DNA of 64,000 nt from Blautia sp. MSJ-19 (GTDB lineage Bacteria > Bacillota > Clostridia > Lachnospirales > Lachnospiraceae). Shown here one piece after another: positions 11,435 through 58,746 of this stretch. The DNA lies in NCBI RefSeq assembly GCF_018918125.1, contig NZ_JAHLQA010000002.1, forward strand, positions 62,001 to 126,000, written 5' to 3'. The position numbers were made by a program, and so were the translations under genes. The notes under the pieces were generated by a model. The model saw only the letters and a list, made by a program, of their open reading frames with translations, had not been told where the DNA came from and did no database searches. Numbering within the stretch: the first letter of the stretch is position 1; every line of letters begins with the position of its first letter.

Positions 11435-11469
11435 TAGATCATAAAAGAATTATAAGATTCAAATTCTCA

Positions 11470-11499: not shown

Positions 11500-11581
11500 G
11501 GGGGATTATAATAATGTTTCAGTGCGGCGTATAGCTGCACAAGAGCAACAACGCAAATCTAACATATAGGAAAGAGAAAAG

Positions 11582-12763: not shown

Positions 12764-12791
12764 ATACCATAGAATAGAAGAAAGTTTTGGG

Positions 12792-12821
12792 AAAAGAGGG
12801 AAAACCCTCTTTTCTTTTTTT
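12792..12821 (+). terminator. Rho-independent terminator of the hrcA-dnaJ operon
   Basis: AAAAGAGGG / CCCTCTTTT around AAAA, then CTTTTTTTT. Confidence 0.9.
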
Positions 12822-12984
12822 GAGGTTTCATGTATATTAGATACCAGGGTTAAAAGAACAAAAGCTGTTCGTGCTTGCACGATAAAGCATTTGGCCTTGG
12901 AACATGCCAAACATGAGGAAGTATCGTATAGATAAAATAGCGTAAAGTTATCATACAGGATAAACAGACAGGAGATTATAATAT

Positions 12985-13938: not shown

Positions 13939-13942
13939 TTTC

Positions 13943-14686
13943 ATGCAAAGGTTTTTTGTAGAACCACATCAGATCGATGAAACGGCACATCAGATTCATA
14001 TTACAGGGACGGATGTCAACCATATTTCCAATGTCCTTCGTATGAAACAGGGAGAAGAGGTATGGATCAGTGACGGTGGAAAAAAAGAATACCGCTGTGC
14101 GATTGAGACATTCAGTCAGGAAGAAGTGCTGCTGCATATTATTTATGCGCAGGAACCGGACTATGAACTGCCGAGCCGAATCTATCTTTTTCAGGGATTG
14201 CCTAAGGCAGACAAGATGGAACTGATCATACAGAAAGCGGTAGAGCTTGGTGCCTATGAAGTCATTCCGGTAGAAACAAAACGCTGTGTTGTGAAGCTGG
14301 ATGGCAAGAAAGCGGCAAAGAAAGTTGACCGCTGGCAGCAGATCGCAGAGAGTGCAGCGAAGCAGTCCAAACGTATGCTGATTCCGAATGTACATCAGGT
14401 GCTTACTTTTAAAGAGGCACTGAAATACGCAGAGTCTATGGATATCCGGCTGATTCCTTATGAACTTGCAAAGGGTATGCAGGAGACAAAAGAAATTCTT
14501 GCTGCAATAGAGCCGGGACAGTCTATAGGAATCTTTATCGGACCGGAAGGCGGATTTGAAGAAAAAGAAGTAGAGGCAGCGATCAGCGAGGGGGCCAGAC
14601 CGATCACGCTTGGCAAACGTATCCTTCGTACTGAAACAGCAGGACTGGCAATCTTATCCGTTCTGATGTTCCAACTTGAAAACTAA
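13943..14686 (+). CDS. rsmE: 16S rRNA m3U1498 methyltransferase
   Basis: 247-aa SPOUT-class methyltransferase that methylates U1498 of 16S rRNA at N3. The N-terminal PUA-like part has MQRFFVEPHQI and HISNVLRMKQGEEV. The SPOUT domain contains LPKADKMELIIQKAVELGAY, ESAAKQSKRMLIP, IFIGPEGGFEEKEVEAA (SAM-binding knot) and LGKRILRTETAGLAILSVLM, all diagnostic. It starts four bases after prmA, so both form one translational unit. A cysteine desulfurase gene follows after 23 nt, probably on the same transcript. Confidence 0.97.
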   Translation: MQRFFVEPHQIDETAHQIHITGTDVNHISNVLRMKQGEEVWISDGGKKEYRCAIETFSQEEVLLHIIYAQEPDYELPSRIYLFQGLPKADKMELIIQKAVELGAYEVIPVETKRCVVKLDGKKAAKKVDRWQQIAESAAKQSKRMLIPNVHQVLTFKEALKYAESMDIRLIPYELAKGMQETKEILAAIEPGQSIGIFIGPEGGFEEKEVEAAISEGARPITLGKRILRTETAGLAILSVLMFQLEN

Positions 14687-40749: not shown

Positions 40750-41490
40750 GTGATATATATCAGTCATCTGCTCCCGGACGGGCAAATGCAGGAGATCATA
40801 AAAAACAGGGAGCTGGGAGTGGAGAGCATTGAATTTTCCATTTCTGAGAATCTGGATTATATGGAAACGACACTGGAAACATACAAAAAAAGACTGGAAC
40901 AGATGGGAAATCCATCACTTATTCTTCATGGACCTTTTCTGGATCTGATTCCGGCTACTTTTGACAGCCTGATCCGTGAAGTGACAATGAAGCGGTTTGC
41001 ACAGTGCTATCAGGCTGGCAGAGAATTGGGGGCCAAAAAGATCGTATATCATTCCGGAATGATTCCGACAGTGTATTTCCGAGAAGGATGGGCAGAACAG
41101 GTAAGCCGTTTTTTCAGAGACTTTCTGAGGGAAAGGACAGGACTGGAAATTGTCATGGAAAATGTGCTGGATGAAGACTGGAGACTTCTGCGGGATGTAT
41201 GTCAGCAGGTAGATCACCCGGATTTCGGACTTTGTCTGGACATTGGCCATGCACACTGTTATTCAGACATATCGGTTGTGGAATGGGCAAAAGAACTGGC
41301 TCCATATGTCCGGCATGTGCATATACATGACAATGCAGGCAAGCGTGATGCGCATATGGGACTTGGAAAAGGAAACCTGCCTTGGCAGGAAACGCTTGCA
41401 TATCTTCCTCAGACAGAGACACGTACATGGACGGTGGAGTGCATGGATGTGAAGGATGTACAGATATGTGTACAATCTTTGTTGACATAA
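40750..41490 (+). CDS. Sugar phosphate isomerase/epimerase-like TIM barrel protein
   Basis: 246-aa protein of the xylose isomerase-like/AP endonuclease 2 superfamily. Metal-binding positions seen: LILHGPF, IVYHSG (about residue 100), IVMENVL (Glu, about residue 136), LCLDIGHAHCY (Asp-x-x-His, about residues 160-164), HVHIHDN and VECMD at the end. The substrate is unknown; relatives act on sugars or inositols, or cut DNA at abasic sites. Start GTG 40750 with GGAG. The promoter of the corrinoid operon overlaps its last codons. Not obviously part of that system. Confidence 0.8.
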   Translation: MIYISHLLPDGQMQEIIKNRELGVESIEFSISENLDYMETTLETYKKRLEQMGNPSLILHGPFLDLIPATFDSLIREVTMKRFAQCYQAGRELGAKKIVYHSGMIPTVYFREGWAEQVSRFFRDFLRERTGLEIVMENVLDEDWRLLRDVCQQVDHPDFGLCLDIGHAHCYSDISVVEWAKELAPYVRHVHIHDNAGKRDAHMGLGKGNLPWQETLAYLPQTETRTWTVECMDVKDVQICVQSLLT

Positions 41491-41510
41491 ATTTGTCAAA
41501 ATGGTATACT
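41482..41510 (+). promoter_or_regulatory. Strong sigma-A promoter of the first cobalamin-riboswitch operon
   Basis: TTGACA at 41482-41487, 17-nt spacer, TATACT at 41505-41510. The -35 and spacer form a perfect dyad TTGACA-TAAATT-TGTCAA (41482-41499), so a repressor could also bind there. Confidence 0.85.
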
Positions 41511-41523
41511 TTATAAAAATTGG

Positions 41524-41685
41524 ATAACCAGGCGTGGTCTGTCGATAAAAGGCAGTTTAACGTAATCCGGTGAGAATCCGGAACAGTTATGGATAGCTGC
41601 TGTGAGTATGCATGAAGCATAATAAGTCAGATATAACACGTTGTGTAGAGGACAGAGACCCGTAGCAAACGGGGCTCTGTTTTTG
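41524..41685 (+). promoter_or_regulatory. Cobalamin riboswitch 1 with terminator
   Basis: Starts ATAACCAGGCGTGGTCTG; the core AATCCGGTGAGAATCCGGAA and then GCTGCTGTGAG match the central cobalamin (B12 box) pattern of paired CCGGTG/AATCCGG and CTGTGA. Later AAGTCAG and ACACGTTGT. The expression platform is CAGAGACCCGT/ACGGGGCTCTG around AGCAA plus TTTTTG (41653-41685). High corrinoid should stop transcription before 41704. It is very similar to the element at 58544. It controls the eleven genes 41704-58437 if they are one transcript. Confidence 0.9.
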
Positions 41686-41703
41686 TTGTCTTTAGGGGGA
41701 AAT

Positions 41704-42585
41704 ATGGAGAAATACAGACATGAAACAGGCTGGAATCAACTTCGTTTTGATATACAGACCTATACTGCACAGAATGAGCGCAACAGAAAAGATGGAACAC
41801 CGGGACAGATACCATTGCAATATAAATATATAGGAGACAGGTGTTTCATGAATAATGGAAAGGTTCATGAAGTGAAATTACCATCAGAATGCAGAATTAT
41901 TGGCAAACGGGCCTTTGAGGGATGTCAGTTTCAGAAGATGGTTGAGTTTCCGGAGACCCTGCTCGAAATCAAGAGCAGAGCGTTTGCAGGCAATCACAGA
42001 CTTCGAAGGACAGTTTTTCCGAAATCTTTGGAACGACTGGGTTCTCAGTGTTATCAGGAATGCAATAAACTTAAGATTGCAGCATTTACGGATAATGTGA
42101 AATGTACGGTGATTCGTGAGGGGACATTTGATTCCTGTGTCAGTCTGACGACCGTATGTCTGCCTGAGCGGACACAGGTGATTGAGAGACGGGCATTTTA
42201 CCGATGCAAAGAATTAAAAGATATTACATTTCCAAATACGCTCAGAGAGATAGGAATGGAAGCTTTCTATTTCTGCGGGATGGATACACTGGAATTGCCG
42301 TTGAATCTGAAAGTGATTGGTGAAAGTGCATTTTTTCGCTGCAAGAATCTGAAGACAGTTTATATTCCACCAAGTGTTCGCAAGATTGGACGCTGGGCAT
42401 TTCACGGTTGCAGCAGACTGGAGCGTATTGAGATTCTCCATGATCTGGAAGAAATTGGTCCGTGGATCATCAATAAGAGTTGTACGATCGTCTGTCGAAA
42501 AGGCAGTCGTATGGAAGAGTATGCAAAAGAATATGATTTTAAATGCGAATATGTAGAAGAAACAGAAGAAAGAAAAGAAGGCTGA
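41704..42585 (+). CDS. BspA-like leucine-rich repeat protein (293 aa)
   Basis: Series of LRR_5/BspA-type repeats of about 23 residues: CRIIGKRAFEGCQFQKMVEF, LLEIKSRAFAGNHRLRRTVF, TQVIERRAFYRCKELKDITF, LREIGMEAFYFCGMDTLELP, LKVIGESAFFRCKNLKTVYI, VRKIGRWAFHGCSRLERIEI. Such proteins are usually secreted, but no signal peptide or anchor is visible here, so it may be cytoplasmic. Start ATG 41704, 19 nt after the riboswitch T tract, with AGGGGG upstream; an upstream frame start at 41641 lies within the riboswitch and is not real. First gene of the corrinoid-regulated unit; its role there is unclear. Confidence 0.85.
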   Translation: MEKYRHETGWNQLRFDIQTYTAQNERNRKDGTPGQIPLQYKYIGDRCFMNNGKVHEVKLPSECRIIGKRAFEGCQFQKMVEFPETLLEIKSRAFAGNHRLRRTVFPKSLERLGSQCYQECNKLKIAAFTDNVKCTVIREGTFDSCVSLTTVCLPERTQVIERRAFYRCKELKDITFPNTLREIGMEAFYFCGMDTLELPLNLKVIGESAFFRCKNLKTVYIPPSVRKIGRWAFHGCSRLERIEILHDLEEIGPWIINKSCTIVCRKGSRMEEYAKEYDFKCEYVEETEERKEG

Positions 42586-42595
42586 GAGGGATTAC

Positions 42596-43102
42596 GTGAA
42601 AAAGAAAAAAAGGATAGTTTTGCTCATATGCAGCTTACTGATCGGGTGCCTTTTACTGTGCGGATGTGGTGCAGGGGAGGCAGAGCTTCCGGATGGAACC
42701 TGTACGATTTCTATTGAATGTAAAAATATATTAGAGAATATAGATAAGCTCAAAGAGAACAAAAAAGAATTTGTACCGGAAGACGGCTGGATTCTGAAAG
42801 AAACGGAAGTTTCGTTTAATGGTGGTGATACAGTGTTTGAGGTGCTCAAAAAGATATGTGCCGAGAATAAAATCCATATGTCATCCAGATATACACCTTT
42901 GTACAAAAGTTATTATATAGAAGGAATTCATCAGTTATATGAACTGGACTGTGGAAGCAATTCCGGATGGATGTACAGTGTAAACGGGAAATTTCCGAAT
43001 AAAGGATGTTCGAAGTATGAGTTAAAAGATGGAGATAAGATTGAATGGCGCTATACCTGTGATCTTGGATCTGATGTAGGAAATGAATATAAAAGGGATT
43101 GA
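42596..43102 (+). CDS. DUF4430 (transcobalamin C-domain-like) lipoprotein (168 aa)
   Basis: Lipoprotein signal: KKKKRIVLLICSLLIGCLLL then CGCG; the lipidated Cys is C24 or C22. The mature part matches DUF4430, the family whose fold equals the C-terminal beta domain of transcobalamin and intrinsic factor: GGDTVFEVLKKICAENKI (about residues 80-97), then the hallmark SGWMYSVNGKFPNKGCSKYE (about residues 123-142) and KDGDKIEWRYTCDLG. In human transcobalamin this domain caps the cobalamin. Behind a cobalamin riboswitch, a corrinoid-binding role is a reasonable inference. Start GTG 42596 follows GAGAGG. Next to it lies the alpha-domain lipoprotein. Confidence 0.88.
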   Translation: MKKKKRIVLLICSLLIGCLLLCGCGAGEAELPDGTCTISIECKNILENIDKLKENKKEFVPEDGWILKETEVSFNGGDTVFEVLKKICAENKIHMSSRYTPLYKSYYIEGIHQLYELDCGSNSGWMYSVNGKFPNKGCSKYELKDGDKIEWRYTCDLGSDVGNEYKRD

Positions 43103-43106
43103 AAAT

Positions 43107-44093
43107 ATGTGGAAAACAAACAGGCAATATGAACAGATAACAGCAAAAGGAATGTCGGCAGCTCTGATTCTGGCGATGACCCTGACTGTGGCGGGATGCG
43201 GAGAAGCCGGGACACCGGAACTCAAAGAGGCAATCCACAAGACAGCGGAGTATGAACAGAAGACCGTATCGTCGCCAGAGGTTGGTTCTCTTGGCGGAGA
43301 ATGGACGGTCCTTGCACTGGCAAGATCTGAGGAAGAAGTGGAGGACAGTTACTTCGAAAAATACAGAGCAAACCTTGAAAAATATGTCAAAGAACAAGAT
43401 GGCATTCTCAGCGAGAATCGATATACCGAATATGCCAGAGTGACGCTTGCTTTGACTGCAATCGGCGGAGATCCGACTGCAATTGGCGGATATGATCTGG
43501 AAAAAAATCTGGAAGATTTTGATGCAGTTACCGCGCAGGGAATAAACGGGGCAATCTTTGCATTGCTGGCACTGAATGCAGATGGAGAAAGAGAGGGAGC
43601 TCTGCAGGAAAAATATCTGGCGTATATTCTCGAAAGAGAAAAAACAGACGGAGGTTTTTCCATGGATGATAATAGTGATCAGGCAGATGTAGATATTACC
43701 GCGATGGCATTACAGAGTCTGGAACCATACCAGAATGAGCAGAATATACAGGAAACGCTGGACCGCGGTGTGGGATTTCTGGCAGACGCACAGGATGCGG
43801 ATGGCGGTTACACGGCATATGGCGAAAAAAGTTCTGAGTCCATATCGCAGACGATACTTGCACTTAGTACACTGGGGGTAGATTGCAATGAGGATGAGCG
43901 TTTTGTGAAGAATGATAAGGGGCTGTATGATACGTTGATGCAGTATTATCAGAAGGATGGCAGCTTTGCACATACCGTGGACGAAAAAGAAGGGAATCCA
44001 ATGGCAACAGATCAGGCTCTGTGCGCACTGGTTTCTTACGAAAGAATGCTGGACAATAAAAATACATTTTACAATATGACAGACCACAGATAA
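43107..44093 (+). CDS. Alpha/alpha-toroid lipoprotein, transcobalamin N-domain-like (328 aa)
   Basis: Lipoprotein signal: helix LILAMTLTVAGC with lipobox VAGC (C31). The mature part has repeats of the terpenoid cyclase/prenyltransferase toroid: GGEWTVLALARSEE, RVTLALTAIGGDP, INGAIFALLALNAD, TDGGFSMDDNSDQADVDITA, ADGGYTAYGEKSSESISQTI, ATDQALCALVSYERM. The GGF/GGY-plus-ALxAL spacing is the alpha6/alpha6 barrel also forming the N-terminal domain of transcobalamin and intrinsic factor. Start ATG 43107 (AAAGGGA upstream) is 4 nt past the DUF4430 gene; a start at 43083 would overlap it and lacks a better site. A complement to the neighbouring beta domain is inferred. Confidence 0.82.
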   Translation: MWKTNRQYEQITAKGMSAALILAMTLTVAGCGEAGTPELKEAIHKTAEYEQKTVSSPEVGSLGGEWTVLALARSEEEVEDSYFEKYRANLEKYVKEQDGILSENRYTEYARVTLALTAIGGDPTAIGGYDLEKNLEDFDAVTAQGINGAIFALLALNADGEREGALQEKYLAYILEREKTDGGFSMDDNSDQADVDITAMALQSLEPYQNEQNIQETLDRGVGFLADAQDADGGYTAYGEKSSESISQTILALSTLGVDCNEDERFVKNDKGLYDTLMQYYQKDGSFAHTVDEKEGNPMATDQALCALVSYERMLDNKNTFYNMTDHR

Positions 44094-44120
44094 GGCACGA
44101 ATGGCTGTTGGGAGGAAAAA

Positions 44121-45059
44121 GTGGCAGATAATAAAATAAAAGAATTAAGAAAAGAACTGGCGAAGATCATAAAAGGAAAAGAAGAGACAACAGACAAGAT
44201 CATCATGGCTGTGCTGGCCGGTGGACATGTGCTTCTGGAAGACGTGCCGGGGGTTGGTAAGACGACAACTGCTCTGGCACTGAGCCGTCTGATGGGAATG
44301 GATTTTCAGAGGATTCAGTTTACACCGGATGTGGTTCCTTCTGATGTGACGGGATTTACTATGTATGACAAAGAAAGCGGCAAGTTTACTTATCGTCCGG
44401 GCGCTGTGATGTGCAACTTCCTTCTTGCGGACGAAGTTAACCGAACTTCCAGTAAGACACAGTCAGCGCTTCTGGAAGTTATGGAAGAAGGCAGGGTAAC
44501 TGTAGACGGAGAAAGTCATCCGGTTCCGAAACCATTTGTGGTCATTGCAACAGAGAATCCGGTTGGCTCTTCCGGAACACAGATGCTTCCGGAATCACAG
44601 CTTGACCGATTTATGATCAGTACTTCGATGGGATATCCGGATCATGGAAGTCTTGTCGAAATCCTTCGTGATCGTCAGGAGGTAAATCCGCTGGAGCATG
44701 CACAGGCGGTGATCAGCAGGGAAGAAATTCTGGACATTCAGGAAGAGGTCAAAAAGATCTATGTGTCGGATGAAATTCTGTCCTATATAGCAGATCTGGC
44801 AGAAGCAACAAGAAGTCATGTATTGATCACATTGGGGTTGAGTCCTCGAGGAACGCTGGCACTTTGCCGTATGGCAAAAGCGGCTGCGTATCTGGATGGC
44901 AGAGATTATATGGTTCCGGAAGATGTGGAGGGTGTGTTTCGTGATGTTGCCGGACACCGGATGGTGTTGGAATCACGGGCACGATATGAAGAAAAAACTT
45001 CACGTCAGATTCTGGAAGAAATCCTTGAGACAGTACAGGCACCGAAGGTAGAGGGATAA
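44121..45059 (+). CDS. MoxR family AAA+ ATPase
   Basis: 312-aa ATPase: Walker A LLEDVPGVGKTTTALAL (about residues 35-51), Walker B FLLADEVNRTSSKTQSALLE (about residues 96-115), sensor 1 VIATENPVGSSGTQMLPESQLDRF and sensor 2 in LGLSPRGTLALCRMAKAAAYLDGR. MoxR proteins usually act as chaperone-like factors with a DUF58 partner; the DUF58 gene follows immediately and a transglutaminase-like membrane protein after that, the standard trio. Start GTG 44121 with GGGAGG. Here the trio lies inside the corrinoid operon, possibly to mature or assemble surface proteins. Confidence 0.94.
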   Translation: MADNKIKELRKELAKIIKGKEETTDKIIMAVLAGGHVLLEDVPGVGKTTTALALSRLMGMDFQRIQFTPDVVPSDVTGFTMYDKESGKFTYRPGAVMCNFLLADEVNRTSSKTQSALLEVMEEGRVTVDGESHPVPKPFVVIATENPVGSSGTQMLPESQLDRFMISTSMGYPDHGSLVEILRDRQEVNPLEHAQAVISREEILDIQEEVKKIYVSDEILSYIADLAEATRSHVLITLGLSPRGTLALCRMAKAAAYLDGRDYMVPEDVEGVFRDVAGHRMVLESRARYEEKTSRQILEEILETVQAPKVEG

Positions 45060-46205
45060 ATGAAAAACAGGATTCTTGTGATAATTTGGCTGGCAGGTAT
45101 GGCAGTTGCCGCATTGTATACGGGAGAATATCTGTATGCAGGGATTCTGACTGTGTCCGGAATCGTAATCGTATTGTCGGCAATCTTCTGTTTGCTTTCC
45201 GGAAGGAAAACAGAAAGTTGCCTGCATCTGCCAAGAGCGGTTGAGAAACAGACAGTTTTTCAGGGAAAACTGGAATTGCATAATCGTTCAATATGGCCGG
45301 TGTTTTACGGAAATGGCTCTGTAATATGCAGAAATACATTTACCGGTGAGGAACAGACCGTACAGATTCCTTTTTCACTGAAAGGCAATGGTACGATGCA
45401 GACTGCCTTTGAAGGGAAAAGTCTCTGGTGTGGCTGTATCAAATGTACATGCAGTAACTGGATAAATACTGATTTTCTGCAGATTTTCCACAAAAAGAAA
45501 TCGACAGAAGCAGAAGCGGATATGGTGATCATGCCGCAGAAACATATTCTGGATCTGTCTGTGCTGACACAGGAAGGCTTTGATATGGAAAGTTTCCGCT
45601 ATGCGTCAAACAGACCGGGAGATGACCCGGGAGAAACTTACGATATCAGAGAATACCGACAGGGTGACAGCGTGCGACAGATTCACTGGAAACTCAGTGA
45701 AAAACTGGATGGGCTGGTAATTCGTGAAAAAAGTTATCCGGTAGATGATGCAGTGCTGATTCTGGCAGATCCGTTTCTGAAGGAGACTGATCCAGAACGA
45801 GCAGAAGCAGTTGTGGAAATTTTTGCAGCATTACTGCAGAGTTTTATGGAAAAGAGAATTCCATGTCAGGCAGGAATCTGTGATGGTGAAAGCGGGCGCT
45901 TTCATATGGAAAAAATCTGTACAACAGAGGATTATGAAAATATGATGTATCTGTTTCTGAGACATGGCGGGAGCAGCAAAGGTCCGTGTGTAGTGCAGGA
46001 ATATCTGAAACTTTCCGGGACGCAGAAATTTTCTAATTATATTTATATAACAGGAGAAGCAACGGATCATGAGGACAGATATCTGAGAGAAAAAGGTCTT
46101 GTTCTCACAATGCGATGTGGACAGAAAGCAGGAAAAACAGAGGATGAGATCATATTTACCAAAGAACAGTTCCGCAAAGAACTGGGATTTCGTTCCGTGA
46201 GATAA
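45060..46205 (+). CDS. DUF58 membrane protein (381 aa)
   Basis: Two N-terminal membrane helices (residues about 5-20 and 26-45), then a beta region and the DUF58 core DPGETYDIREYRQGDSVRQIHWKLSEKLDGLVIREKSY... (from about residue 190), followed by a von Willebrand A-like stretch (DDAVLILADPF). Begins directly after the MoxR stop. DUF58 proteins work with MoxR ATPases in cell-envelope processes; details are poorly known. The next gene, transglutaminase-like, begins after 36 nt. No unusual feature. Confidence 0.9.
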   Translation: MKNRILVIIWLAGMAVAALYTGEYLYAGILTVSGIVIVLSAIFCLLSGRKTESCLHLPRAVEKQTVFQGKLELHNRSIWPVFYGNGSVICRNTFTGEEQTVQIPFSLKGNGTMQTAFEGKSLWCGCIKCTCSNWINTDFLQIFHKKKSTEAEADMVIMPQKHILDLSVLTQEGFDMESFRYASNRPGDDPGETYDIREYRQGDSVRQIHWKLSEKLDGLVIREKSYPVDDAVLILADPFLKETDPERAEAVVEIFAALLQSFMEKRIPCQAGICDGESGRFHMEKICTTEDYENMMYLFLRHGGSSKGPCVVQEYLKLSGTQKFSNYIYITGEATDHEDRYLREKGLVLTMRCGQKAGKTEDEIIFTKEQFRKELGFRSVR

Positions 46206-46241
46206 TATAAAGTCAGGCAGAAACAGAGGAGAATAGAACGG

Positions 46242-48554
46242 ATGGAATTGTGGCTTTCACAGGCAGAAAATGCCAGACAGAAACTGAATAAGAAAATACT
46301 GCTGAGTATTTTTGTGGAGGCATTGCTGATCTTTGCCACCTTTGGAATCGGCGTCTGTGAAATATTGCATATGCTTACTGGAATGCAGATTTCATGGCTG
46401 TATCTGGCCGGAGCAGCAGGAAGTATTCTGCTTTGTCTGTTTTTGGAAAAATGGCATCGATTTGGTATACAGGCAGGAGCCGTTTTTTTTATTCTGTATG
46501 TGGGTGTGCTGCTGATTTTTCATGCGACAATTCAAAATGGAATGCTTGGGGTGTGGAATCAGGTGGCAGATATGTTTGGGAGCAAAGCCGGAATCTATCT
46601 GACACGTTATGCGGTTTCAGAGAATGGGATGGCGGCAGACCAGGTATACTTTCTGACATTGATGGGAATTGCAGCAGGAGTGATCGGCTATGCAGTCACA
46701 CGCCTTCGACTGAGTATTCTGCTGCTCTTATATAGTATGGTGCCTCCGGTATTGATCAGTCTGCTGGATCAGAACCCGGATGGAAGAATGACAGTTCTTT
46801 TTTATACAGGTATATTTCTTCTGATCAACTGGATAAGTTCATCGAACAGAAATATCCAACAGGAAAAACATGCACCGGCATTTGCAGCAGGAGCTTTGTT
46901 TCTGTGTATTGTGGCAGCAGTGAGCGGGGGGAGTTTCCAGTTGCTTGTGCCGGAAACAGGATATGAGACATCAGAGCTGGTGACAAATGCCCGGGAGGAA
47001 TTTCGGGATAAGATAGAAACATTCCGTTTTCAAAAAGGAAAGATCAACACATTGCCGGAAGGCAGACTCAAAGAAACAGGCGAGTGGACTGCATCAGATG
47101 AAACTGCACTTACAGTAAAAATGGAGGTTCCGGATTCTCTGTATCTCAGGGGCTTTGTCGGAAGCGTATATGATGGAGATCGATGGAAAACAATCTCAAC
47201 AGAAGATGCATGGAAAGAAAAAACTCTTTTTTACTGGCTGCATCAGGATGGATTCTATGGAGAAACACAGCTTTCTGAAGTCAGAAATATGATTCAGGAT
47301 GATACACTTTCTTCTGAAACAGGCACCATGCAGATTACAAATAATCATGCAGACAGCCGATATCTTTATACCCCGTATGAAATGACAGAACTTCCGGAAG
47401 GCTATACGGGAGAGACCGCACTGACGGACAGTACACTGGCATCCGGAGGCCTGTTTGGAAACAGAAAATACAGCCTGCAGACGATGGGAAATCTGGTAAA
47501 AGATTTTACGACCCTTGGAGCTGAAAGTTATCAGATGCTGGCAGAGGGCGGGCAGATGGGCTACAGGGAGACGGAAAGCTATTATAATGCATTTGTATAT
47601 GAGCAGGACACTGTACTTCCAGATTCACTTACCAGCTTGTTTCAGAAGGAACTGGGAAATGGCGGAAACCGGGAACAGGGGCATACAGATTACTATACTG
47701 CAATCTCTAGAATACGTGCATATCTGGAGAAAAATATGACATACAGTACAGCGACGGATCCCTTTACAGATTCTGGTGATTTTGTAACCAATTTTCTTAC
47801 AGAATCCAAAATCGGACACAGCGTGCATTATGCTACAGCAGCAACACTGATGTTTCGGTATTACGGAATTCCTTCCAGATATGTGGAAGGTTATCTGATC
47901 ACGCCGGAAGATGTGCGGGATAAGACTGCGGGAGACAGCATTGAGATTCCGGGAAAAAACGGACATGCATGGACGGAAATCTATATGGATGGTCTGGGCT
48001 GGGTACCGATAGAAATGACTCCGGAATATTATGGTGTTATGGAGGAACCGGATCTGACCCTTGGTCTTGAGGCACAGGGAAGCCGGACAGCTCCGCTGCC
48101 GGAAGTCCAGGATCATACGGAAGAACTTCCGGATATCCAGACACACTGGAACCTGAAACTGGCACTTGCAGGACTGACAAGATTTCTGGTATTGCTTTTA
48201 CTTGTGATTGATGTGTTCTGCATTCTTTTCTTTATGATCGTGTGCGGCCTTCGGGTTTATGCAAATTTTCGAAGAAAAAAAGCATTTGCCTCGAAAGACA
48301 GTCGTGTGGCTGTACGGGCACTGACTGGCTATGCGGTACAACTTTACCATCATGGAGATTATGGACCAGAGTTGAGTGATCGTTATCAGACAGCATACCG
48401 CACAGGTGAAAAAGCTGCATTCAGCCGACATGAGATTTCTGAAAAAGAACGAAAAGACGTAGAACAGTGTGTGGCACAGATGATAACTGAATTAAAGGCA
48501 AAAACAGGCTGGTATGATCTGTGGATCATGAAGTATATTGAACGATTATTATAA
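46242..48554 (+). CDS. Transglutaminase-like membrane protein with substituted catalytic Cys (770 aa)
   Basis: TgpA-like layout: about six N-terminal membrane helices (residues about 20-230), extracellular part, transglutaminase core (about residues 500-600), one more helix (LVLLLLVIDVFCILFFMIV, about residues 650-670) and a cytoplasmic tail. The usual core GYCEHFA reads GHSVHYA here, so the nucleophile position is Ser527; the histidine is kept in GHAWTEIY (His575) and the Asp position reads Glu591 in VPIEMTP. The common Cys-His-Asp triad is thus Ser-His-Glu, so normal transglutaminase/protease chemistry is unlikely; binding or a different activity is possible. Third member of MoxR-DUF58-TG set. 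Confidence 0.88.
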   Translation: MELWLSQAENARQKLNKKILLSIFVEALLIFATFGIGVCEILHMLTGMQISWLYLAGAAGSILLCLFLEKWHRFGIQAGAVFFILYVGVLLIFHATIQNGMLGVWNQVADMFGSKAGIYLTRYAVSENGMAADQVYFLTLMGIAAGVIGYAVTRLRLSILLLLYSMVPPVLISLLDQNPDGRMTVLFYTGIFLLINWISSSNRNIQQEKHAPAFAAGALFLCIVAAVSGGSFQLLVPETGYETSELVTNAREEFRDKIETFRFQKGKINTLPEGRLKETGEWTASDETALTVKMEVPDSLYLRGFVGSVYDGDRWKTISTEDAWKEKTLFYWLHQDGFYGETQLSEVRNMIQDDTLSSETGTMQITNNHADSRYLYTPYEMTELPEGYTGETALTDSTLASGGLFGNRKYSLQTMGNLVKDFTTLGAESYQMLAEGGQMGYRETESYYNAFVYEQDTVLPDSLTSLFQKELGNGGNREQGHTDYYTAISRIRAYLEKNMTYSTATDPFTDSGDFVTNFLTESKIGHSVHYATAATLMFRYYGIPSRYVEGYLITPEDVRDKTAGDSIEIPGKNGHAWTEIYMDGLGWVPIEMTPEYYGVMEEPDLTLGLEAQGSRTAPLPEVQDHTEELPDIQTHWNLKLALAGLTRFLVLLLLVIDVFCILFFMIVCGLRVYANFRRKKAFASKDSRVAVRALTGYAVQLYHHGDYGPELSDRYQTAYRTGEKAAFSRHEISEKERKDVEQCVAQMITELKAKTGWYDLWIMKYIERLL

Positions 48555-48571
48555 GAAAGGAGACACACCGG

Positions 48572-49906
48572 ATGAAACAAAAAAGGAAATTTGACAAAAA
48601 ACAGATTCTGGTGGCAGTACTCCTTATGGTGGGAATTGTATTGTCCGGTGGATTTTTTGTATGGGGGATACACGGACAGCAACCGGAGGTCGTCGAGAAT
48701 CCGGTACAGGGAATCAATGCAGCGAGTTCTTTTAAGGGTTATTTGGGAAAAGGATATGCTTATGCAGGACCGGAGACAGATGATGCCGATGGCATAGACA
48801 ATACAGATATGCAGGCACAGACACTGGAGGAACCTGAGGAAGAGCAGGAAGAAGAGACAATACAGGAAAATCCGGAAGAAACAGAGCCTGATACTGCACC
48901 GGCAGAGGAACAGCCGCAGGAAGTCTATGAAGATACGTCAAATGAAGAAAATCCTTTTTCAGAGGACGAAAATGCACAGGACTCCGAGACAGTTCCGGAT
49001 GAGATCGTCTACGACAATGAAAATAAGGATGAAGAAGATGAACAGGAGGCGCCGGAGCAGGATGACGACACCAACCAGGATCAGGCAGATTTGCCACCGG
49101 ATGAGGATGGTACTGATCAGGTTCCGGAAGAAAACAGATATCCGTCAGTTGCGACAGATCTGACGGACGGTGAAACGGTGCAGGCTTCTTATCGAACTTT
49201 TTATGTACAGGCATATGATTATCAGGGGAATGTTCTTTCTTCGGCAGCATTGGAGGTGACTGGGAACGGACAGAAATTGTATTCCATTGGAACAGACGGG
49301 CAGGGCATCGTTTCGTATCGCCTGGAATTGAATGATGGCAGCAATACGGTCAGTATCCGTGTCACGGACAATGAAGGCTGGAGCACGACGATCCCAGAGT
49401 ATACGATCTATAAAGGTGCAGATGAACAGCCACAGCCGGAGGGTAGTATCACGATCAGTATTGAGGCGGGAACCGTAGGGCTGGGAATGCTTCTGGCACC
49501 GCAGCAGGTGGAATATTACCAGGGAGAACAGCTTGCATCAGTCCTTTTGCGGACGTTGGATGCGAATGGATTTGACTGGAGAAATGTAGGAGAAGCTACA
49601 AGTGGATTTTATCTGCGGTCCATCGGGAGAAGTGGGATGACTGCGGGAGCTGCGATCCCGGATGAACTGATGGCGCATCTGAATGAAGTAAACAGTCAGC
49701 TCACAAGTCATGACAATGACTGGCTGGGAGAATTCGACTTTACGATGGATTCCGGATGGCTGTACTTTGTCAATGGAGAATATATGAATACAGGAATGTC
49801 TGGCTATTTTCCGGCAGACGGAGATGTAGTGAGACTGAGATTTTCGCTGTATGCAGGCGCGGATGTTGGCGCTGGACAGAACGGTGAGACATGGGGAGAC
49901 TGGTGA
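48572..49906 (+). CDS. Membrane-anchored DUF4430 protein with acidic stalk (444 aa)
   Basis: N-terminal signal-anchor (about residues 10-32, ILVAVLLMVGIVLSGGFFVW), then a Glu/Asp/Gln/Pro-rich stalk (about residues 65-190), an Ig-like beta domain (about 195-290; TFYVQAYDYQGNVLSSAALE) and a C-terminal DUF4430 domain (about 295-435) with EQLASVLLRTLDANGFDW, MDSGWLYFVNGEYMNTGMSG and DGDVVRLRFSLYAGADVG. The domain is the second transcobalamin-C-like unit in this operon. The stalk probably spans the wall. Start ATG 48572 with AAAGGAGA. Ends overlapping the propeller protein gene (TGATG). Confidence 0.88.
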   Translation: MKQKRKFDKKQILVAVLLMVGIVLSGGFFVWGIHGQQPEVVENPVQGINAASSFKGYLGKGYAYAGPETDDADGIDNTDMQAQTLEEPEEEQEEETIQENPEETEPDTAPAEEQPQEVYEDTSNEENPFSEDENAQDSETVPDEIVYDNENKDEEDEQEAPEQDDDTNQDQADLPPDEDGTDQVPEENRYPSVATDLTDGETVQASYRTFYVQAYDYQGNVLSSAALEVTGNGQKLYSIGTDGQGIVSYRLELNDGSNTVSIRVTDNEGWSTTIPEYTIYKGADEQPQPEGSITISIEAGTVGLGMLLAPQQVEYYQGEQLASVLLRTLDANGFDWRNVGEATSGFYLRSIGRSGMTAGAAIPDELMAHLNEVNSQLTSHDNDWLGEFDFTMDSGWLYFVNGEYMNTGMSGYFPADGDVVRLRFSLYAGADVGAGQNGETWGDW

Positions 49907-54837: not shown

Positions 54838-55844
54838 ATCAGAAAGTAAACGATGCTTTTTCAAATTGCCATCCGTTTTTGAATTTTTTCTATTTTACGG
54901 TGGTGCTGCTGTTTACCATGTTCAACCAGCATCCGGTTTTTCTGGCAATCTCTTATGTCAGTGCGGTGACTTATGCTGTGCTTCTGCATGGATTAAAAAA
55001 GACACTGAAGCAGATGTTTCTTCTGACCGGACCAGGACTTTTGGTGGTAACACTTCTTAATCCGCTTTTTAATCATTATGGTGTGACCATGCTGTATTAT
55101 GTAGAAGCAAGTGGAAACTGGATCACGCTGGAGGCACTGGTGTATGGACTGGTGCTGGGTGCAGTCATGTTTATCATCATTCAATGGTTCAGCTGTTATA
55201 ATAGTGTAATGACAACAGATAAATTTGTGTATCTGTTTGGACGAGTGATTCCGGCATTATCACTGGTACTGTCTATGGCACTTCGATTTGTTCCACGATT
55301 TACGGAACAGTTGGGAAAAATCCGTAATGGACAAAAAGCCATGGGAAGAGATATAGCGAATGGCAATGTGCTTAAACGGGCAAAGCATGGGATGAATATT
55401 TTATCGATCCTTGTGACCTGGGCATTGGAAAATGCAATTGAGACTTCTGATTCTATGAGAAGCAGAGGATATGGGCTCCGTGGAAGAACTGCGTTTTCCA
55501 TATACCGCTATACTACAAGAGACCGGTGGCTGACCGTGATCATGACAGGCTTGTTTGCTGTTTTTGCAGTGGGCTGTGCCGGTGGCGCTGCCTATGCGGT
55601 GTATGATCCGCAGATTGAACTGGCAGGCCTGACCGTGCAGGGAAGACAGGCAGCGGTGAGTTGCGGGACACTGCCTGCAATAGCAACTTATGTGGCATTT
55701 GCACTGTTCTGTTTCCTGCCGGTACTGTTGCATGCGGCAGAAAGATGGGCGTTGCACAACAGGAAAAAAACAGTGGGTACCGATATTGGGCTGACCTATC
55801 GAAAAATCTATGAAGAACTGGAACAGGAGAGAACGTGTTCATGA
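54834..55844 (+). CDS. ECF transporter T component (EcfT)
   Basis: 336-aa membrane protein with about six helices. EcfT coupling motif ETSDSMRSRGYGLRGRT (about residues 204-220) contains the Ala/Ser-Arg-Gly type coupling helix that contacts the ATPases; front part LNFFYFTVVLLFTMFNQHPV is typical. It links the substrate-binding S component with the energising ATPases. Start ATG 54834 overlaps the preceding stop with GGAGAATG ahead. The cytoplasmic C-terminal tail (YRKIYEELEQERTCS) is longer than the core family. The dedicated T component suggests a group I-type (own-module) ECF transporter. Confidence 0.92.
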   Translation: MNQKVNDAFSNCHPFLNFFYFTVVLLFTMFNQHPVFLAISYVSAVTYAVLLHGLKKTLKQMFLLTGPGLLVVTLLNPLFNHYGVTMLYYVEASGNWITLEALVYGLVLGAVMFIIIQWFSCYNSVMTTDKFVYLFGRVIPALSLVLSMALRFVPRFTEQLGKIRNGQKAMGRDIANGNVLKRAKHGMNILSILVTWALENAIETSDSMRSRGYGLRGRTAFSIYRYTTRDRWLTVIMTGLFAVFAVGCAGGAAYAVYDPQIELAGLTVQGRQAAVSCGTLPAIATYVAFALFCFLPVLLHAAERWALHNRKKTVGTDIGLTYRKIYEELEQERTCS

Positions 55845-57577
55845 ATATAGTGGAAATCAGAAATTTCAGTTTCAGCTATCCGGAGCAGCAAAAAAAAGCT
55901 CTTAAGCAGATGAATCTGGATATAGAAGAAGGCACTTTGAATGTGATCTGCGGCAGGAGCGGCTGTGGGAAAAGCACATTGCTTCGTCAGATGAAAACAG
56001 TTCTGGCACCACACGGAGAGACAGAAGGGAAAATCCTTTACAAAGGTATACCGCTGGCAGAACTGGATCACAGAACGCAGAGTCAGGAAATTGGTTTTGT
56101 GATGCAGAATCCGGACAATCAGATCGTAACAGACAAGGTGTGGCATGAACTTGCATTCGGACTGGAAAGCCTTGGATATGACAGTCCGACGATCCGGCTC
56201 AGAGTAGCAGAAATGGCAAGTTATTTTGGAATTCATCAGTGGTTTTATCGTGATGTAAAAGAACTGTCCGGAGGGCAGAAACAACTCCTGAATCTGGCTG
56301 CGATCATGGCGATGCATCCGTCTCTTCTGATCCTGGATGAGCCGACGTCGCAGCTGGATCCGATCGCGGCATCTGACTTTCTGGAAACGGTCAAAAAAAT
56401 AAACAGAGATATTGGTACGACGGTAATTCTGACAGAACATCGCCTGCAGGATATCATTCCGTTTGCGGATCATGTGTTTGTCATGGATCAGGGGGAACTT
56501 CTTACAGAGGGAGAGCCAGGTGAAATCGGGATGGAACTGAAAAAGAGACAGCATGGAATGTTTCTTTCCATGCCGGTTCCGATGCAGATTTACGGTGCTG
56601 TGGACAGTGATCTGCAGTGTCCTCTGACAGTAAGCGAGGGCAGGATCTGGATGCAGAAATATCTGGAAGAGCATCCGGCAGGCAACATGTACAGTCAAGA
56701 TGACAACAGGGAAAACATGCATCATAATCAGGAAACTGGTTCGACAAAAGAAAAGAAGAAAAAAGAAAAACCGGTGATTGAAGTAAAAGATGTATGGTTT
56801 CGATATGAAAAAGACAGCCCGGATGTAGTGCGTGATCTGTCATTTCAGGTAAAAAAAGGGGAATTTTATGCCCTGGTAGGTGGAAATGGTACCGGCAAAA
56901 GCACGACGCTGTCTTTGCTGAGCCGTATCCGTGCACCGTATCGGGGCAGAATCTGCCTGGAGGGGAAAGATATTCGTAAATTCAGTGACGGAGAACTGTA
57001 TAATGGATATCTCGGGGTGCTTCCACAGAATCCGCAGAGTCTGTTCCTCAAAAAAACAGTGCTGGAAGATCTGTATTCTGTGATCGGTGGAAAAAAGGAA
57101 CGCAGGTCACAGGAATATCCGATCGCAATGCAGAAAGAAAAAGCAATCGAAGGGATTGTAAGTCTGACCAGGCTGGAGGGTTTGCTGGAGCGACATCCGT
57201 ATGATCTGAGCGGTGGCGAACAGCAGAGACTGGCACTGGCAAAGGTACTTCTGCTCAGACCCAAAATCCTTCTGATGGATGAGCCGACAAAAGGAATGGA
57301 CGCAGAGTACAAAGAGGAACTGGGAAAAATCCTCAGGAAGCTTCAACAGCATGGAATTACCGTGTTCATGATCTCTCATGATGTAGAATTTGTAGCAGAA
57401 TATGCAGATCGCGTAGGGCTGTTCTTTGAGGGAAATATAGTTACAAGCAATGAGACGCGTGCCTTTTTTGCAGGAAACAGCTTCTATACGACTGCTGCGA
57501 ATCGGATGGCACGGCAGTTCTTTCCGGAGGCGGTCACAGGAAAGGATGTGGTAAGATGCTTAATGAACAAGAATTAG
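55841..57577 (+). CDS. Fused ECF ATPase (A and A' domains in one chain, 578 aa)
   Basis: Two ABC ATPase domains. First (about residues 1-240): Walker A CGRSGCGKSTLL, Q-loop VMQNPDNQIVTDKVWHELAFG, signature LSGGQKQLL, Walker B LLILDEPTSQLDP. Linker Lys/Glu-rich. Second (about residues 305-540): GGNGTGKSTTL, LPQNPQSLFLKKTV, LSGGEQQRLALAKVL, ILLMDEPTKGMD, ISHDVEF. Both sites look intact. ECF transporters normally have separate A and A' subunits or a fused form as here. ATG 55841 overlaps the T gene stop; a GTG at 55835 is less likely. Overlaps the S component by 22 nt. Confidence 0.95.
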   Translation: MNIVEIRNFSFSYPEQQKKALKQMNLDIEEGTLNVICGRSGCGKSTLLRQMKTVLAPHGETEGKILYKGIPLAELDHRTQSQEIGFVMQNPDNQIVTDKVWHELAFGLESLGYDSPTIRLRVAEMASYFGIHQWFYRDVKELSGGQKQLLNLAAIMAMHPSLLILDEPTSQLDPIAASDFLETVKKINRDIGTTVILTEHRLQDIIPFADHVFVMDQGELLTEGEPGEIGMELKKRQHGMFLSMPVPMQIYGAVDSDLQCPLTVSEGRIWMQKYLEEHPAGNMYSQDDNRENMHHNQETGSTKEKKKKEKPVIEVKDVWFRYEKDSPDVVRDLSFQVKKGEFYALVGGNGTGKSTTLSLLSRIRAPYRGRICLEGKDIRKFSDGELYNGYLGVLPQNPQSLFLKKTVLEDLYSVIGGKKERRSQEYPIAMQKEKAIEGIVSLTRLEGLLERHPYDLSGGEQQRLALAKVLLLRPKILLMDEPTKGMDAEYKEELGKILRKLQQHGITVFMISHDVEFVAEYADRVGLFFEGNIVTSNETRAFFAGNSFYTTAANRMARQFFPEAVTGKDVVRCLMNKN

Positions 57578-58437
57578 ATCAGTTTCTGGACGAGTTCATG
57601 GATACAGAAAAAAGAACGGCACTGACCATGCCTGAACAAAAGAAAAAGAAACACAAAAAGGAAATGGTGACAGAGGAGTATACGCTGCCATCGGATGGAC
57701 TTATTATCAGACAGATGAAAAAAGAAGGAACGGTCAGCAAACGAACCTGGGCAGCAATGTTTTTGCTTTTGCTGGTGGTTCCACCGGTGTTGTTTTTTTC
57801 AGTAAAAGTTTTTCATGGGAGAAAATACCTTCTGTGCAGTCTGATTGTGGTGATTGCGGCGATGCTGCCTTTTTTTATGATGTTTGAAGGCAGGAAGCCA
57901 AAGGCAAGAGAAATCATGGTCATATCGGTACTTGCAGCAATCGGTGTGGCTGGCAGGGCTGCCTTTTTTATGGTCCCGAGCTTCAAGCCGGTGGCAGCGA
58001 TCGTGATTCTGACGGGGATATCCTTCGGCGGGGAAGCCGGATTTCTTGTGGGATGTATGATCATGCTGCTGTCCAATATGTTTATGGGACAGGGACCATG
58101 GACTCCGTGGCAGATGTTTGCGTTTGGAATCATTGGATACCTGGCAGGCATTCTCTATCAGTGTGGGATTCTCAAAGCAAAAAAAACACAGCTTTGTATA
58201 TTTGGATTTCTCAGTGTTTTTCTGATTTATGGAGGTATTATGAACCCGGCCGGAATCCTGATGTCTTATGGATATATTACAAAAAGCACCTTGATTGCCT
58301 ATTATATTTCCGGGGCACCAGTCGATCTGGTGCATGCGCTTTCTACGGTATTTTTCCTGTGGGTACTCAGCCGGCCGCTGCTCGAAAAGCTGGAGAGGAT
58401 CAAGGTGAAATACGGTCTGATCGAGAAAAATGCCTGA
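57556..58437 (+). CDS. ECF transporter S component, probably cobalamin type
   Basis: 293-aa membrane protein: a cytoplasmic start of about 55 residues rich in Lys, helices, then the S-component core with GRAAFFMVPSFKPVAAIVIL, GISFGGEAGFLVGCMIMLLS, NMFMGQGPWTPWQMFAFGII. These blocks resemble the cobalamin-type S components named CblT/CbrT in comparative studies of ECF transporters; the resemblance is from memory. Being last in a cobalamin-riboswitch operon with EcfT and EcfAA' supports corrinoid uptake. Queuosine or other ligands cannot be fully excluded. Start ATG 57556 lies within the ATPase gene end. Confidence 0.87.
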   Translation: MLNEQELDQFLDEFMDTEKRTALTMPEQKKKKHKKEMVTEEYTLPSDGLIIRQMKKEGTVSKRTWAAMFLLLLVVPPVLFFSVKVFHGRKYLLCSLIVVIAAMLPFFMMFEGRKPKAREIMVISVLAAIGVAGRAAFFMVPSFKPVAAIVILTGISFGGEAGFLVGCMIMLLSNMFMGQGPWTPWQMFAFGIIGYLAGILYQCGILKAKKTQLCIFGFLSVFLIYGGIMNPAGILMSYGYITKSTLIAYYISGAPVDLVHALSTVFFLWVLSRPLLEKLERIKVKYGLIEKNA

Positions 58438-58502: not shown

Positions 58503-58531
58503 TTGACGAAAATGTAAAAAAATGGTATAAT
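58503..58531 (+). promoter_or_regulatory. Sigma-A promoter of the second riboswitch transcript
   Basis: TTGACG at 58503-58508, 17-nt spacer, TATAAT at 58526-58531. The spacer end ATGG and -10 match the layout of the promoter at 41482, pointing to common origin. Confidence 0.85.
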
Positions 58532-58543: not shown

Positions 58544-58710
58544 ATAACCAGACGTGGTCTGATTTGGTGAAATTAGTTTATGGAAATCCGGTGTGAATCC
58601 GGAACGGAATCGGCTGTGATAGGTGCATGACGCGGAATGCATGTTTAGTCAGCGTAACTGACACGTTGTACAGGGCAGAGACTCATCAGATTTATGAGGC
58701 TCTGTTTTTT
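58544..58710 (+). promoter_or_regulatory. Cobalamin riboswitch 2 with terminator
   Basis: ATAACCAGACGTGGTCTG, then AATCCGGTGTGAATCCGGAA, CGGCTGTGATAGG, a TGCATG hairpin, AGTCAGCGTAACTGACACGT and the terminator CAGAGACTCAT/ATGAGGCTCTG plus TTTTTT (58676-58710). Same order as riboswitch 1 with strong conservation in the core and the terminator outer stem. Fills most of the 309-nt gap 58438-58746. It should shut the giant protein gene when corrinoid is plentiful. Confidence 0.9.
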
Positions 58711-58746
58711 GTTGCTAAAAGTGAATTTCACAAAAGGAGGAGAAAA

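What the first reader, a model, noticed from the sequence alone, without database searches (positions are those of the whole stretch)
41482..58437. Candidate corrinoid capture-and-import operon, eleven genes behind one cobalamin riboswitch
A strong promoter, a cobalamin-type riboswitch and its terminator precede eleven genes with gaps of at most 36 nt or overlaps: LRR protein, DUF4430 lipoprotein, alpha-toroid lipoprotein, MoxR, DUF58, transglutaminase-like, DUF4430 membrane protein, propeller protein, EcfT, EcfAA', EcfS. The parts fit a surface-to-cytoplasm corrinoid pathway in a Gram-positive bacterium. ECF cobalamin transporters are known; I know of no described system with this set of surface parts.
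Basis: partly seen in the sequence, partly recalled or inferred. Interest (0 to 1): 0.93.

Follow-up and report, generated by a model that had tools for sequence, protein, structure and literature searches.

The report
Blautia vitamin B12 capture-and-import operon
A gut bacterium carries a B12-sensing RNA switch in front of eleven genes that look like a kit for catching B12-type molecules at the cell surface and pumping them in, and three of those genes turn out to travel with such kits in many related bacteria.

Summary
In detail: promoter, cobalamin-type riboswitch with terminator, eleven genes with gaps of at most 36 nt. The riboswitch scores below Rfam's cut-off (36.5 of 50 bits), but so do 15 same-genus switches just upstream of cbiD, and the same RNA subtype, with compensatory changes, stands at the same locus in three sister genomes. 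EcfS has one PDB sequence match, CbrT of the B12 transporter ECF-CbrT. DUF4430 genes lie near it in 66 of 80 named loci; 6 of 14 scanned have a canonical cobalamin riboswitch before the operon. This core was predicted for B12 scavenging in 2007, so the kind is known. New here: (1) the MoxR-DUF58-transglutaminase-like trio groups with trios beside DUF4430/toroid/ECF genes in 14 genera of one family, in varied orders; one has nearly the same set (no LRR gene) behind a canonical cobalamin riboswitch; (2) its transglutaminase-like protein lacks the catalytic cysteine (kept in 2 of 126 aligned rows); (3) a second riboswitch of the subtype directly downstream precedes a giant surface protein. The LRR protein looks cytoplasmic. 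Likely mechanism: cobalamin-repressed surface capture and ECF-CbrT import, the trio assembling surface proteins. Function is untested.

The parts
41482..41510 (+). promoter-like TTGACA-17-TATACT with extended TG
   Evidence: 11 of 12 consensus positions
41525..41685 (+). cobalamin-clan riboswitch 1 including terminator hairpin (about 41649-41684)
41704..42585 (+). LRR_5 (BspA-type) protein, 293 aa, no hydrophobic segment, probably cytoplasmic
42596..43102 (+). DUF4430 (transcobalamin beta-domain-like) lipoprotein (lipobox read by eye), 168 aa
43083..44093 (+). alpha/alpha-toroid lipoprotein, 336 aa as listed (lipobox VAGC read by eye; a later start is likely)
44121..45059 (+). MoxR-type AAA+ ATPase
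45060..46205 (+). DUF58 protein with N-terminal TM segments
46242..48554 (+). TgpA_N + transglutaminase-like membrane protein with Ser527-His575-Glu591 at the triad positions
48572..49906 (+). DUF4430 protein with N-terminal TM segment and acidic linker, 444 aa
49891..54837 (+). 1648-aa surface protein, Cadherin-like domains and propeller-like region, C-terminal TM segment
54810..55844 (+). EcfT
55835..57577 (+). EcfA-A' fused double ATPase
57556..58437 (+). EcfS, CbrT-like substrate component
58503..58531 (+). second promoter-like site TTGACG-17-TATAAT
58545..58711 (+). cobalamin-clan riboswitch 2, same subtype, with terminator hairpin (about 58672-58710)
58747..64000 (+). giant, apparently secreted protein (2147 aa; runs past the window end) with FIVAR and a possibly SLBB-like domain

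Best explanation
This is a cobalamin-repressed operon for catching and importing corrinoids in a Blautia-like bacterium (genus inferred from the nearest named loci). When cytoplasmic cobalamin is low, the riboswitch lets transcription pass the terminator (direction inferred from the riboswitch class). A split transcobalamin (DUF4430 lipoprotein plus toroid lipoprotein), a membrane-anchored DUF4430 protein and a large anchored propeller-type protein catch corrinoids at the envelope (inferred). They pass them to the CbrT-like EcfS (homology shown), which with EcfT and EcfAA' imports them with ATP (known for the Lactobacillus delbrueckii homologue). The MoxR-DUF58-transglutaminase-like trio is a real part of the system (linkage shown) and most likely is a membrane-linked chaperone that assembles or conditions the surface proteins; its transglutaminase-like domain has lost the nucleophile and probably acts by binding (inferred, about 0.5). 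The second riboswitch unit adds giant surface proteins to the same regulon. My step probabilities: corrinoid import 0.93; DUF4430/toroid bind corrinoid 0.75; trio serves the surface proteins 0.5.
For: EcfS: only PDB sequence match at E up to 1 is 6fnp_A, E 1.4e-14; 6FNP is ECF-CbrT (PMC5997447 passages). Riboswitch: RF01482 E 4.5e-5; in the loci held, 8 RNAs of the subtype, two in each of 4 genomes, all at this locus; 13 of 41 predicted pairs have at least one double-sided change. Calibration: 15 RF01482 hits lying within 500 nt upstream of a cbiD match on the same strand score 28.3-45.2 bits, all under the cut-off of 50 (places, distances recounted). Context: 66 of 80 named EcfS loci (up to 10 kb each side) hold a DUF4430 gene and 53 of 80 also a toroid gene; 6 of 14 of these loci that I scanned have a cobalamin riboswitch of 78.7-126 bits just before the first surface gene. 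CbiZ follows EcfS in Eubacterium oxidoreducens. A natural toroid-DUF4430 fusion from a sister operon has transcobalamin, intrinsic factor and haptocorrin chains in Foldseek ranks 1-15. G029 has the full set in the same order. Trio: of 27 transglutaminase-like hits outside the own genome in 397 family genomes, 14 of the 15 closest lie within about 10 kb of DUF4430/toroid/EcfS genes, against 2 of the other 12; in 19 of 23 such loci a DUF4430, toroid, Ecf or propeller-type gene is adjacent within 150 nt on the same strand; trees; L226: cobalamin riboswitch (105.6 bits) then EcfT-A-S-DUF4430-MoxR-DUF58-TG-toroid-DUF4430-propeller with gaps of at most 69 nt.
Against: No binding, transport or expression data. 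Both riboswitches are under the curated cut-offs. The best Pfam model of EcfS is the riboflavin S component (38.2 bits, cut-off 26.7), and NCBIfam's best are riboflavin and folate models far under cut-off. The window's toroid matches terpene cyclases at least as well as transcobalamin (first at rank 12; not among the 50 rows), and sequence searches of the PDB with the toroid and with the fusion family list cyclases, not transcobalamin. The fusion's match to the transcobalamin family has low TM-scores (0.31-0.35 by query length) and rmsd 12-15, so domains but not their placement agree; its VIA list shows toroid folds only. The window's first DUF4430 protein has no PDB sequence match better than E 0.96. 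14 of 80 EcfS loci show neither DUF4430 nor toroid, only some of them cut short. Eight of 14 scanned loci show no riboswitch at gathering; four (L059, L086, L098, L120) have kilobases of upstream sequence. Of 8 trio loci scanned (7, L228 added) only L226 has one; the others are cut at or near the operon start. G022 and G042 lack the separate DUF4430 lipoprotein, and MoxR is incomplete in G022. The genome has CbiD and may make corrinoids itself. Related trios sit beside pilin/sortase genes and LRR giants, so the trio's chemistry need not be corrinoid-specific.
Confidence: 0.86

Rival explanations
1. The trio is a general surface-protein module that is only swept into whatever surface operon is at hand; it does nothing specific for corrinoids.
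For: Trios behind pilin and sortase genes (G000 C4 by Pfam; G042 by phmmer; G022 and G029 by likeness of the neighbouring N-termini) and with LRR giants in 8 loci; PFNA cluster fn3-aaa-duf58-tgm in Bifidobacterium (PMC8430577 passages).
Against: Trios cluster by partner: 20 corrinoid-linked transglutaminase-like proteins from 14 genera group together (support 88/87, below the strict mark), LRR-linked and pilus-linked ones apart; the corrinoid label needs 4 changes against 13.7 in shuffles. Three other corrinoid-linked rows (G259, G282, G317) fall outside. For MoxR the label needs 4 changes against 13.0, but the corrinoid-linked rows form several groups, not one. Clustering shows specialisation by partner; the biochemical job may still be the same.
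Confidence: 0.45
2. The transporter moves cobalt or another vitamin, not corrinoids (CbiQ/CbiO-like and riboflavin-S-like names).
For: EcfT hits CbiQ (29.3 bits) and EcfA hits cbiO models; the best Pfam model of EcfS is the riboflavin S component.
Against: EcfS has CbrT as its only PDB sequence match and no cobalt model at E up to 0.01; CbiZ follows it in a relative; cobalamin riboswitches precede several relatives.
Confidence: 0.04
3. A surface adhesion operon that merely happens to be under a cobalamin riboswitch.
For: LRR, Cadherin-like, FIVAR and Ig-like domains are common in adhesins (recalled; domains).
Against: Repeated co-occurrence of DUF4430/toroid genes with CbrT-type T-A-S and with cobalamin riboswitches in distant taxa.
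Confidence: 0.06
4. The trio is an energy-coupled machine that strips or hands over corrinoids between surface receptors and EcfS (MoxR ATPase as motor).
For: Adjacency to EcfS in L218 and L219 and to DUF4430 or toroid genes elsewhere; MoxR proteins act in cofactor and metal insertion elsewhere (recalled).
Against: Many CbrT-type loci lack the trio: it lies within about 30 kb of EcfS in 6 of 23 genomes with an EcfS hit at E 1e-20 or better, so it is not needed for transport as such.
Confidence: 0.15

Closest known systems
Transcobalamin-like SLBB proteins with CbiO/CbiQ operons in Gram-positive bacteria (Burroughs et al. 2007, PMC1796856; section 7 part 1 of 2 and passages read)
   Same: DUF4430/SLBB-type and toroid surface proteins, a second SLBB paralogue, propeller and FIVAR fusions, CbiO/CbiQ, predicted B12 scavenging.
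   Different: The word riboswitch does not occur; no CbrT S component and no MoxR-DUF58-transglutaminase trio in the text read; figures not seen. It notes that the hosts usually lack key B12 synthesis enzymes, whereas this genome has CbiD.
ECF-CbrT of Lactobacillus delbrueckii (PMC5997447; passages read)
   Same: EcfT, EcfA/A' and a CbrT-related S component; imports cobalamin and cobinamide.
   Different: There CbrT shares one ECF module with other S components and lies in nrdJ-cbrS-cbrT-pduO; here T, AA' and S are encoded together with surface proteins.
PFNA cluster of Bifidobacterium (PMC8430577; passages read)
   Same: Surface protein followed by MoxR ATPase, DUF58 and a transglutaminase-like membrane protein.
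   Different: FN3 surface protein and Pkb2 kinase instead of transcobalamin-like proteins and ECF transporter; no cobalamin link in the passages read.
BtuG/BtuH surface B12 proteins of gut Bacteroidetes (PMC8941943; passages read)
   Same: Surface B12 binders, BtuG a beta-propeller, in riboswitch-associated transport loci.
   Different: Gram-negative BtuB-based system; [quoted passage not shown] The propeller protein here had no PDB sequence match to BtuG or BtuH at E up to 0.1.

Membership tests
ECF-CbrT cobalamin transporter | S component homologous to CbrT | tested here: met
   only PDB match 6fnp_A, E 1.4e-14, residues 119-288
ECF-CbrT cobalamin transporter | EcfT and EcfA/A' energising module encoded with it | tested here: met
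ECF-CbrT cobalamin transporter | ATP-driven cobalamin/cobinamide uptake | not testable with these tools
   needs a transport assay
Cobalamin riboswitch (Rfam clan CL00101) | score at the curated cut-off of RF01482 or RF00174 | tested here: not met
   36.5 of 50; switch 2: 20.5 of 31.5; 15 same-genus hits upstream of cbiD also fall short of 50
Cobalamin riboswitch (Rfam clan CL00101) | full-length model match with conserved core and B12-box, supported by covariation | tested here: met
   model positions 1-149; 13 of 41 pairs with a double-sided change in 8 sequences
Cobalamin riboswitch (Rfam clan CL00101) | cobalamin binding and repression | not testable with these tools
   needs in-line probing or a termination assay
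Transcobalamin-like proteins | DUF4430 (beta) domain | tested here: met
   84.5 and 28.5 bits, cut-off 23.8
Transcobalamin-like proteins | alpha/alpha toroid closest to that of transcobalamin | tested here: inconclusive
   window toroid: terpene cyclases and transcobalamin at similar E, cyclases on top; fused relative: transcobalamin family on top in Foldseek, cyclases by sequence profile
MoxR-DUF58-transglutaminase (PFNA-type) module | gene order MoxR, DUF58, transglutaminase-like membrane protein | tested here: met
MoxR-DUF58-transglutaminase (PFNA-type) module | FN3 surface protein and Pkb2 kinase genes in the cluster | tested here: not met
   none among the eleven genes' domains
Transglutaminase-like cysteine enzymes | Cys-His-Asp triad | tested here: not met
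   Ser-His-Glu in the window; Cys kept in 2 of 126 aligned rows

The most novel reading that the evidence does not exclude
A corrinoid-dedicated branch of the MoxR-DUF58-transglutaminase-like module forms, with ECF-CbrT and split transcobalamins, an energised surface-to-membrane corrinoid relay of Gram-positive bacteria: the MoxR ATPase, acting through membrane DUF58 and a nucleophile-free transglutaminase fold, loads, holds or releases the corrinoid receptors, a functional counterpart of TonB/BtuG-type uptake in Gram-negatives.
Probability: 0.2. Interest if true: 0.86.

Novelty: new variant of a known kind. Interest (0 to 1): 0.62.

Why it matters
How Gram-positive gut bacteria catch cobamides at their surface is poorly known, as PMC8941943 says of the Firmicutes (passage). 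Corrinoids are a shared and contested resource in the gut (recalled). This locus gives a defined, riboswitch-tagged parts list, and the comparative result adds a partner module (MoxR, DUF58 and a nucleophile-free transglutaminase-like protein) whose job can be tested here against a likely ligand.

Tried and rejected
Cobalt or another vitamin rather than corrinoid transport: rejected mainly on the S component's PDB match and the riboswitches, although Pfam's best S model is the riboflavin one. First view that the trio occurs only in four Blautia-like genomes: rejected after wider searches; the 10-20 kb stretches had cut it off. View that the trio is only a chance neighbour shared with pilus operons: weakened by the trees, whose long branches and moderate supports leave single placements unsure. 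Structure: the VIA lists did not show transcobalamin among their 50 rows for either model; for the window toroid the fold is generic. The fused model is of modest quality (pLDDT 72, pTM 0.59, 6 sequences). PDB search with the propeller protein gave only weak kinase matches, taken as noise; the giant protein matched only its FIVAR region. Profile comparison of the giant's domain with DUF4430 gave 66% probability with one profile and 13% with the other. A degenerate riboswitch pattern found only G022 and G042 among 64 genus genomes because its gap limit excludes the window's own spacing; its absences mean little. In one search only the two best candidates per genome were scored and the 397 genomes are a sample of the family. 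L227 and L230 were poorly called by my ORF picker; their transglutaminase-like frames were taken directly. My ORF picker also hid the toroid gene of G029 behind an opposite-strand frame; tblastn finds it. The loop-loop contact of cobalamin riboswitches was not evident in the terminator hairpins (read by eye), and I do not know what competes with the terminator. Papers: full-text searches, in open-licence papers only; Rodionov 2009 is known to me here only through passages of PMC5997447.
Full report
Observation. The eleven ORFs, their order and spacing are as described. The promoter-like site at 41482-41510 is a near-consensus match but sits among 30 sites where 30.0 are expected by chance. Rfam at gathering gives nothing in the window; with relaxed filters RF01482 matches full length at 41540-41683 with 36.5 bits (cut-off 50) and E 4.5e-5 for 601 bases.

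How far to trust the riboswitch. In 98 genomes (own plus relatives) 53 have an RF01482 match at E 0.01 or better but only 2 pass the cut-off. Comparing those places with the cbiD places, I find 15 matches 117-286 nt upstream of a cbiD match on the same strand, scoring 28.3-45.2 bits (recounted). So cobalamin switches of this genus often fail the cut-off. The window's subtype occurs eight times in the loci I hold, twice in each of four genomes (window, G029, G022, G042), always at this locus. Aligned, they fold into a closing stem, two hairpins, the B12-box arm and a terminator; 13 of 41 pairs have at least one double-sided compensatory change. One of the eight (G022, second switch) lacks most of the first hairpin strand.

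A second unit. One of each pair of switches lies just after EcfS (window, G029) or after the propeller genes (G022, G042). In the window it is at 58545-58711, with its own promoter-like site, before an apparently secreted protein of 2147 aa that leaves the window, followed by a 712-aa one. The giant has a FIVAR domain. Its residues 1069-1228 define a domain that an iterated profile finds at E below 1e-5 in 16 of the 80 named CbrT-type loci, for example in the gene between DUF4430 and EcfT in Eubacterium oxidoreducens. Profile comparison with DUF4430 is only suggestive (66% probability, P 5.6e-5 with one profile; 13%, P 0.0021 with the other).

The transporter. EcfS has one PDB sequence match at E up to 1, chain A of 6FNP, E 1.4e-14; PMC5997447 gives 6FNP as ECF-CbrT and reports uptake of cobalamin and cobinamide (passages). 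Its best Pfam model is the riboflavin S component, a reminder that S families are hard to tell apart by such models. EcfT and the fused EcfAA' fit.

The surface parts. In 80 named loci found by EcfS (up to 10 kb each side), 66 hold a DUF4430 gene, 53 also a toroid gene, 12 a propeller-type relative, 7 an LRR relative; 14 hold neither DUF4430 nor toroid. Of 14 of those 80 loci that I scanned with Rfam at gathering, 6 carry a canonical cobalamin riboswitch (78.7-126 bits) directly upstream of the first surface gene, in Viridibacillus, Kurthia, Bittarella and three uncultured lineages; 8 show none, part of them cut at the operon start. The window's toroid model is good (pLDDT 87.7) but its fold is generic: terpene cyclases lead, transcobalamin appears from rank 12 at E 3.5e-4, and it is not in the VIA rows. 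A natural toroid-DUF4430 fusion from a sister operon (L112) has members of the transcobalamin, intrinsic factor and haptocorrin family in ranks 1-15, but with low TM-scores and rmsd 12-15, a modest model, only toroid folds in the VIA rows, and cyclases in a sequence-profile search. The LRR protein has no hydrophobic segment, and its role is unknown.

The trio. MoxR, DUF58 and the transglutaminase-like gene first seemed limited to four genomes. A search of 397 family genomes with the transglutaminase-like protein gave 27 places outside the own genome at E 1e-40 or better, in 24 genomes; all 27 neighbourhoods were fetched. Sixteen hold DUF4430, toroid or EcfS genes, 7 hold LRR giants, 4 neither; of the 15 closest hits 14 are corrinoid-linked, of the other 12 only 2. 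In 19 of 23 corrinoid-linked trios, counting those of the window's genus, a DUF4430, toroid, Ecf or propeller-type gene is adjacent on the same strand within 150 nt. Among the 23 genomes of the relatives set with an EcfS hit at E 1e-20 or better, 6 have the trio within about 30 kb of EcfS, so it is an accessory. In the tree 20 corrinoid-linked proteins from 19 genomes in 14 genera group together (88/87, not at the strict mark), LRR-linked and pilus-linked ones apart, three corrinoid-linked rows outside; the corrinoid label needs 4 changes against 13.7 in shuffles, none of 500 as low. For MoxR the label needs 4 changes against 13.0, in several groups rather than one.

An independent copy. In L226, from another genus of the family, a canonical cobalamin riboswitch (RF00174, 105.6 bits) ends 6 nt before the EcfT frame and is followed by EcfA, EcfS (6fnp_A, E 5.6e-4), DUF4430, MoxR, DUF58, transglutaminase-like, toroid, DUF4430 and propeller-type genes on the same strand, gaps at most 69 nt. 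Of the eight trio loci scanned with Rfam only this one had a hit; the others are cut at or near the operon start.

The transglutaminase-like protein. At the catalytic Cys position the window has Ser, with His kept and Glu for Asp. Among 126 aligned rows (the 120 listed of 510 hits, the window's own among them, plus 6 from loci) that position is Ser in 65, Asp in 41, Ala in 12, Pro in 6 and Cys in 2. A cross-linking enzyme is therefore unlikely; a binding role is inferred. Triad and motif positions are recalled knowledge.

Sister genomes. G029 has the same genes in the same order (toroid 73%, MoxR 87%, first DUF4430 69% identical). G022 and G042 have EcfT-A-S first, no separate DUF4430 lipoprotein, a propeller protein in pieces, and in G022 an incomplete MoxR.

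What is known. Burroughs et al. 2007 predicted B12 scavenging by SLBB/transcobalamin-like proteins with CbiO/CbiQ in these bacteria. ECF-CbrT is biochemically proven elsewhere. The trio is known as part of the PFNA cluster in Bifidobacterium. I found no paper joining trio and cobalamin: searches returned five and one papers, none of them on this link by title or abstract start. So this is a new variant of a known kind. Its value lies in the joined parts list, the corrinoid-linked trio branch and the two-switch regulon.

Limits. The host encodes CbiD, so import may supplement synthesis. Whether the riboswitch represses, what the trio does and which corrinoid is bound are open.

Noticed in passing
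window 40750-41490; L159:12284-13045; L160:17197-17955: A TIM-barrel (AP_endonuc_2) gene lies just upstream of riboswitch 1 in the window and a 254-aa gene at the same place in G029, but a like gene sits inside the operon between EcfS and the toroid gene in G022 and G042 (Pfam tested for the window and for G042's copy as L055); a possible further member of unknown role.
   Followed up: partly
L153 (G000:C4) 3071-10652; L155; L156; L247: Paralogous MoxR-DUF58-transglutaminase-like trios follow pilin and sortase genes (Pfam for L153, phmmer for L247, likeness by eye for L155 and L156), a pilus-linked branch of the same module.
   Followed up: partly
L152 (G000:C3) 3393-14507: A third trio follows a 1495-aa LRR surface protein and is followed by a GGDEF/SBP_bac_3 protein; LRR-linked trios recur in other genera.
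   Followed up: partly
L154 (G000:C6) 8318-14330: A second DUF4430 giant (1726 aa, Ig-like domains) lies next to a 275-aa relative of the window's LRR protein, so the LRR-DUF4430 pairing recurs.
   Followed up: no
98 genomes: The RF01482 cut-off misses most matches of this genus: 53 genomes with hits at E 0.01 or better, 2 over the cut-off; 15 sub-threshold hits lie just upstream of cbiD.
   Followed up: partly
L057:10917-11705; L065:10888-11685: Sortase genes directly follow EcfS in two sister operons, fitting wall-anchored proteins there.
   Followed up: no
L093 2858-3799; L068: Eubacterium callanderi and a goat MAG show a second ORF matching the EcfS profile before the DUF4430 gene of the same operon.
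   Followed up: no
L157 (G022:C104) 2844-12266: A further trio with propeller-type and LRR genes but no ECF genes on its short contig; its transglutaminase-like frame lacks the core region.
   Followed up: no
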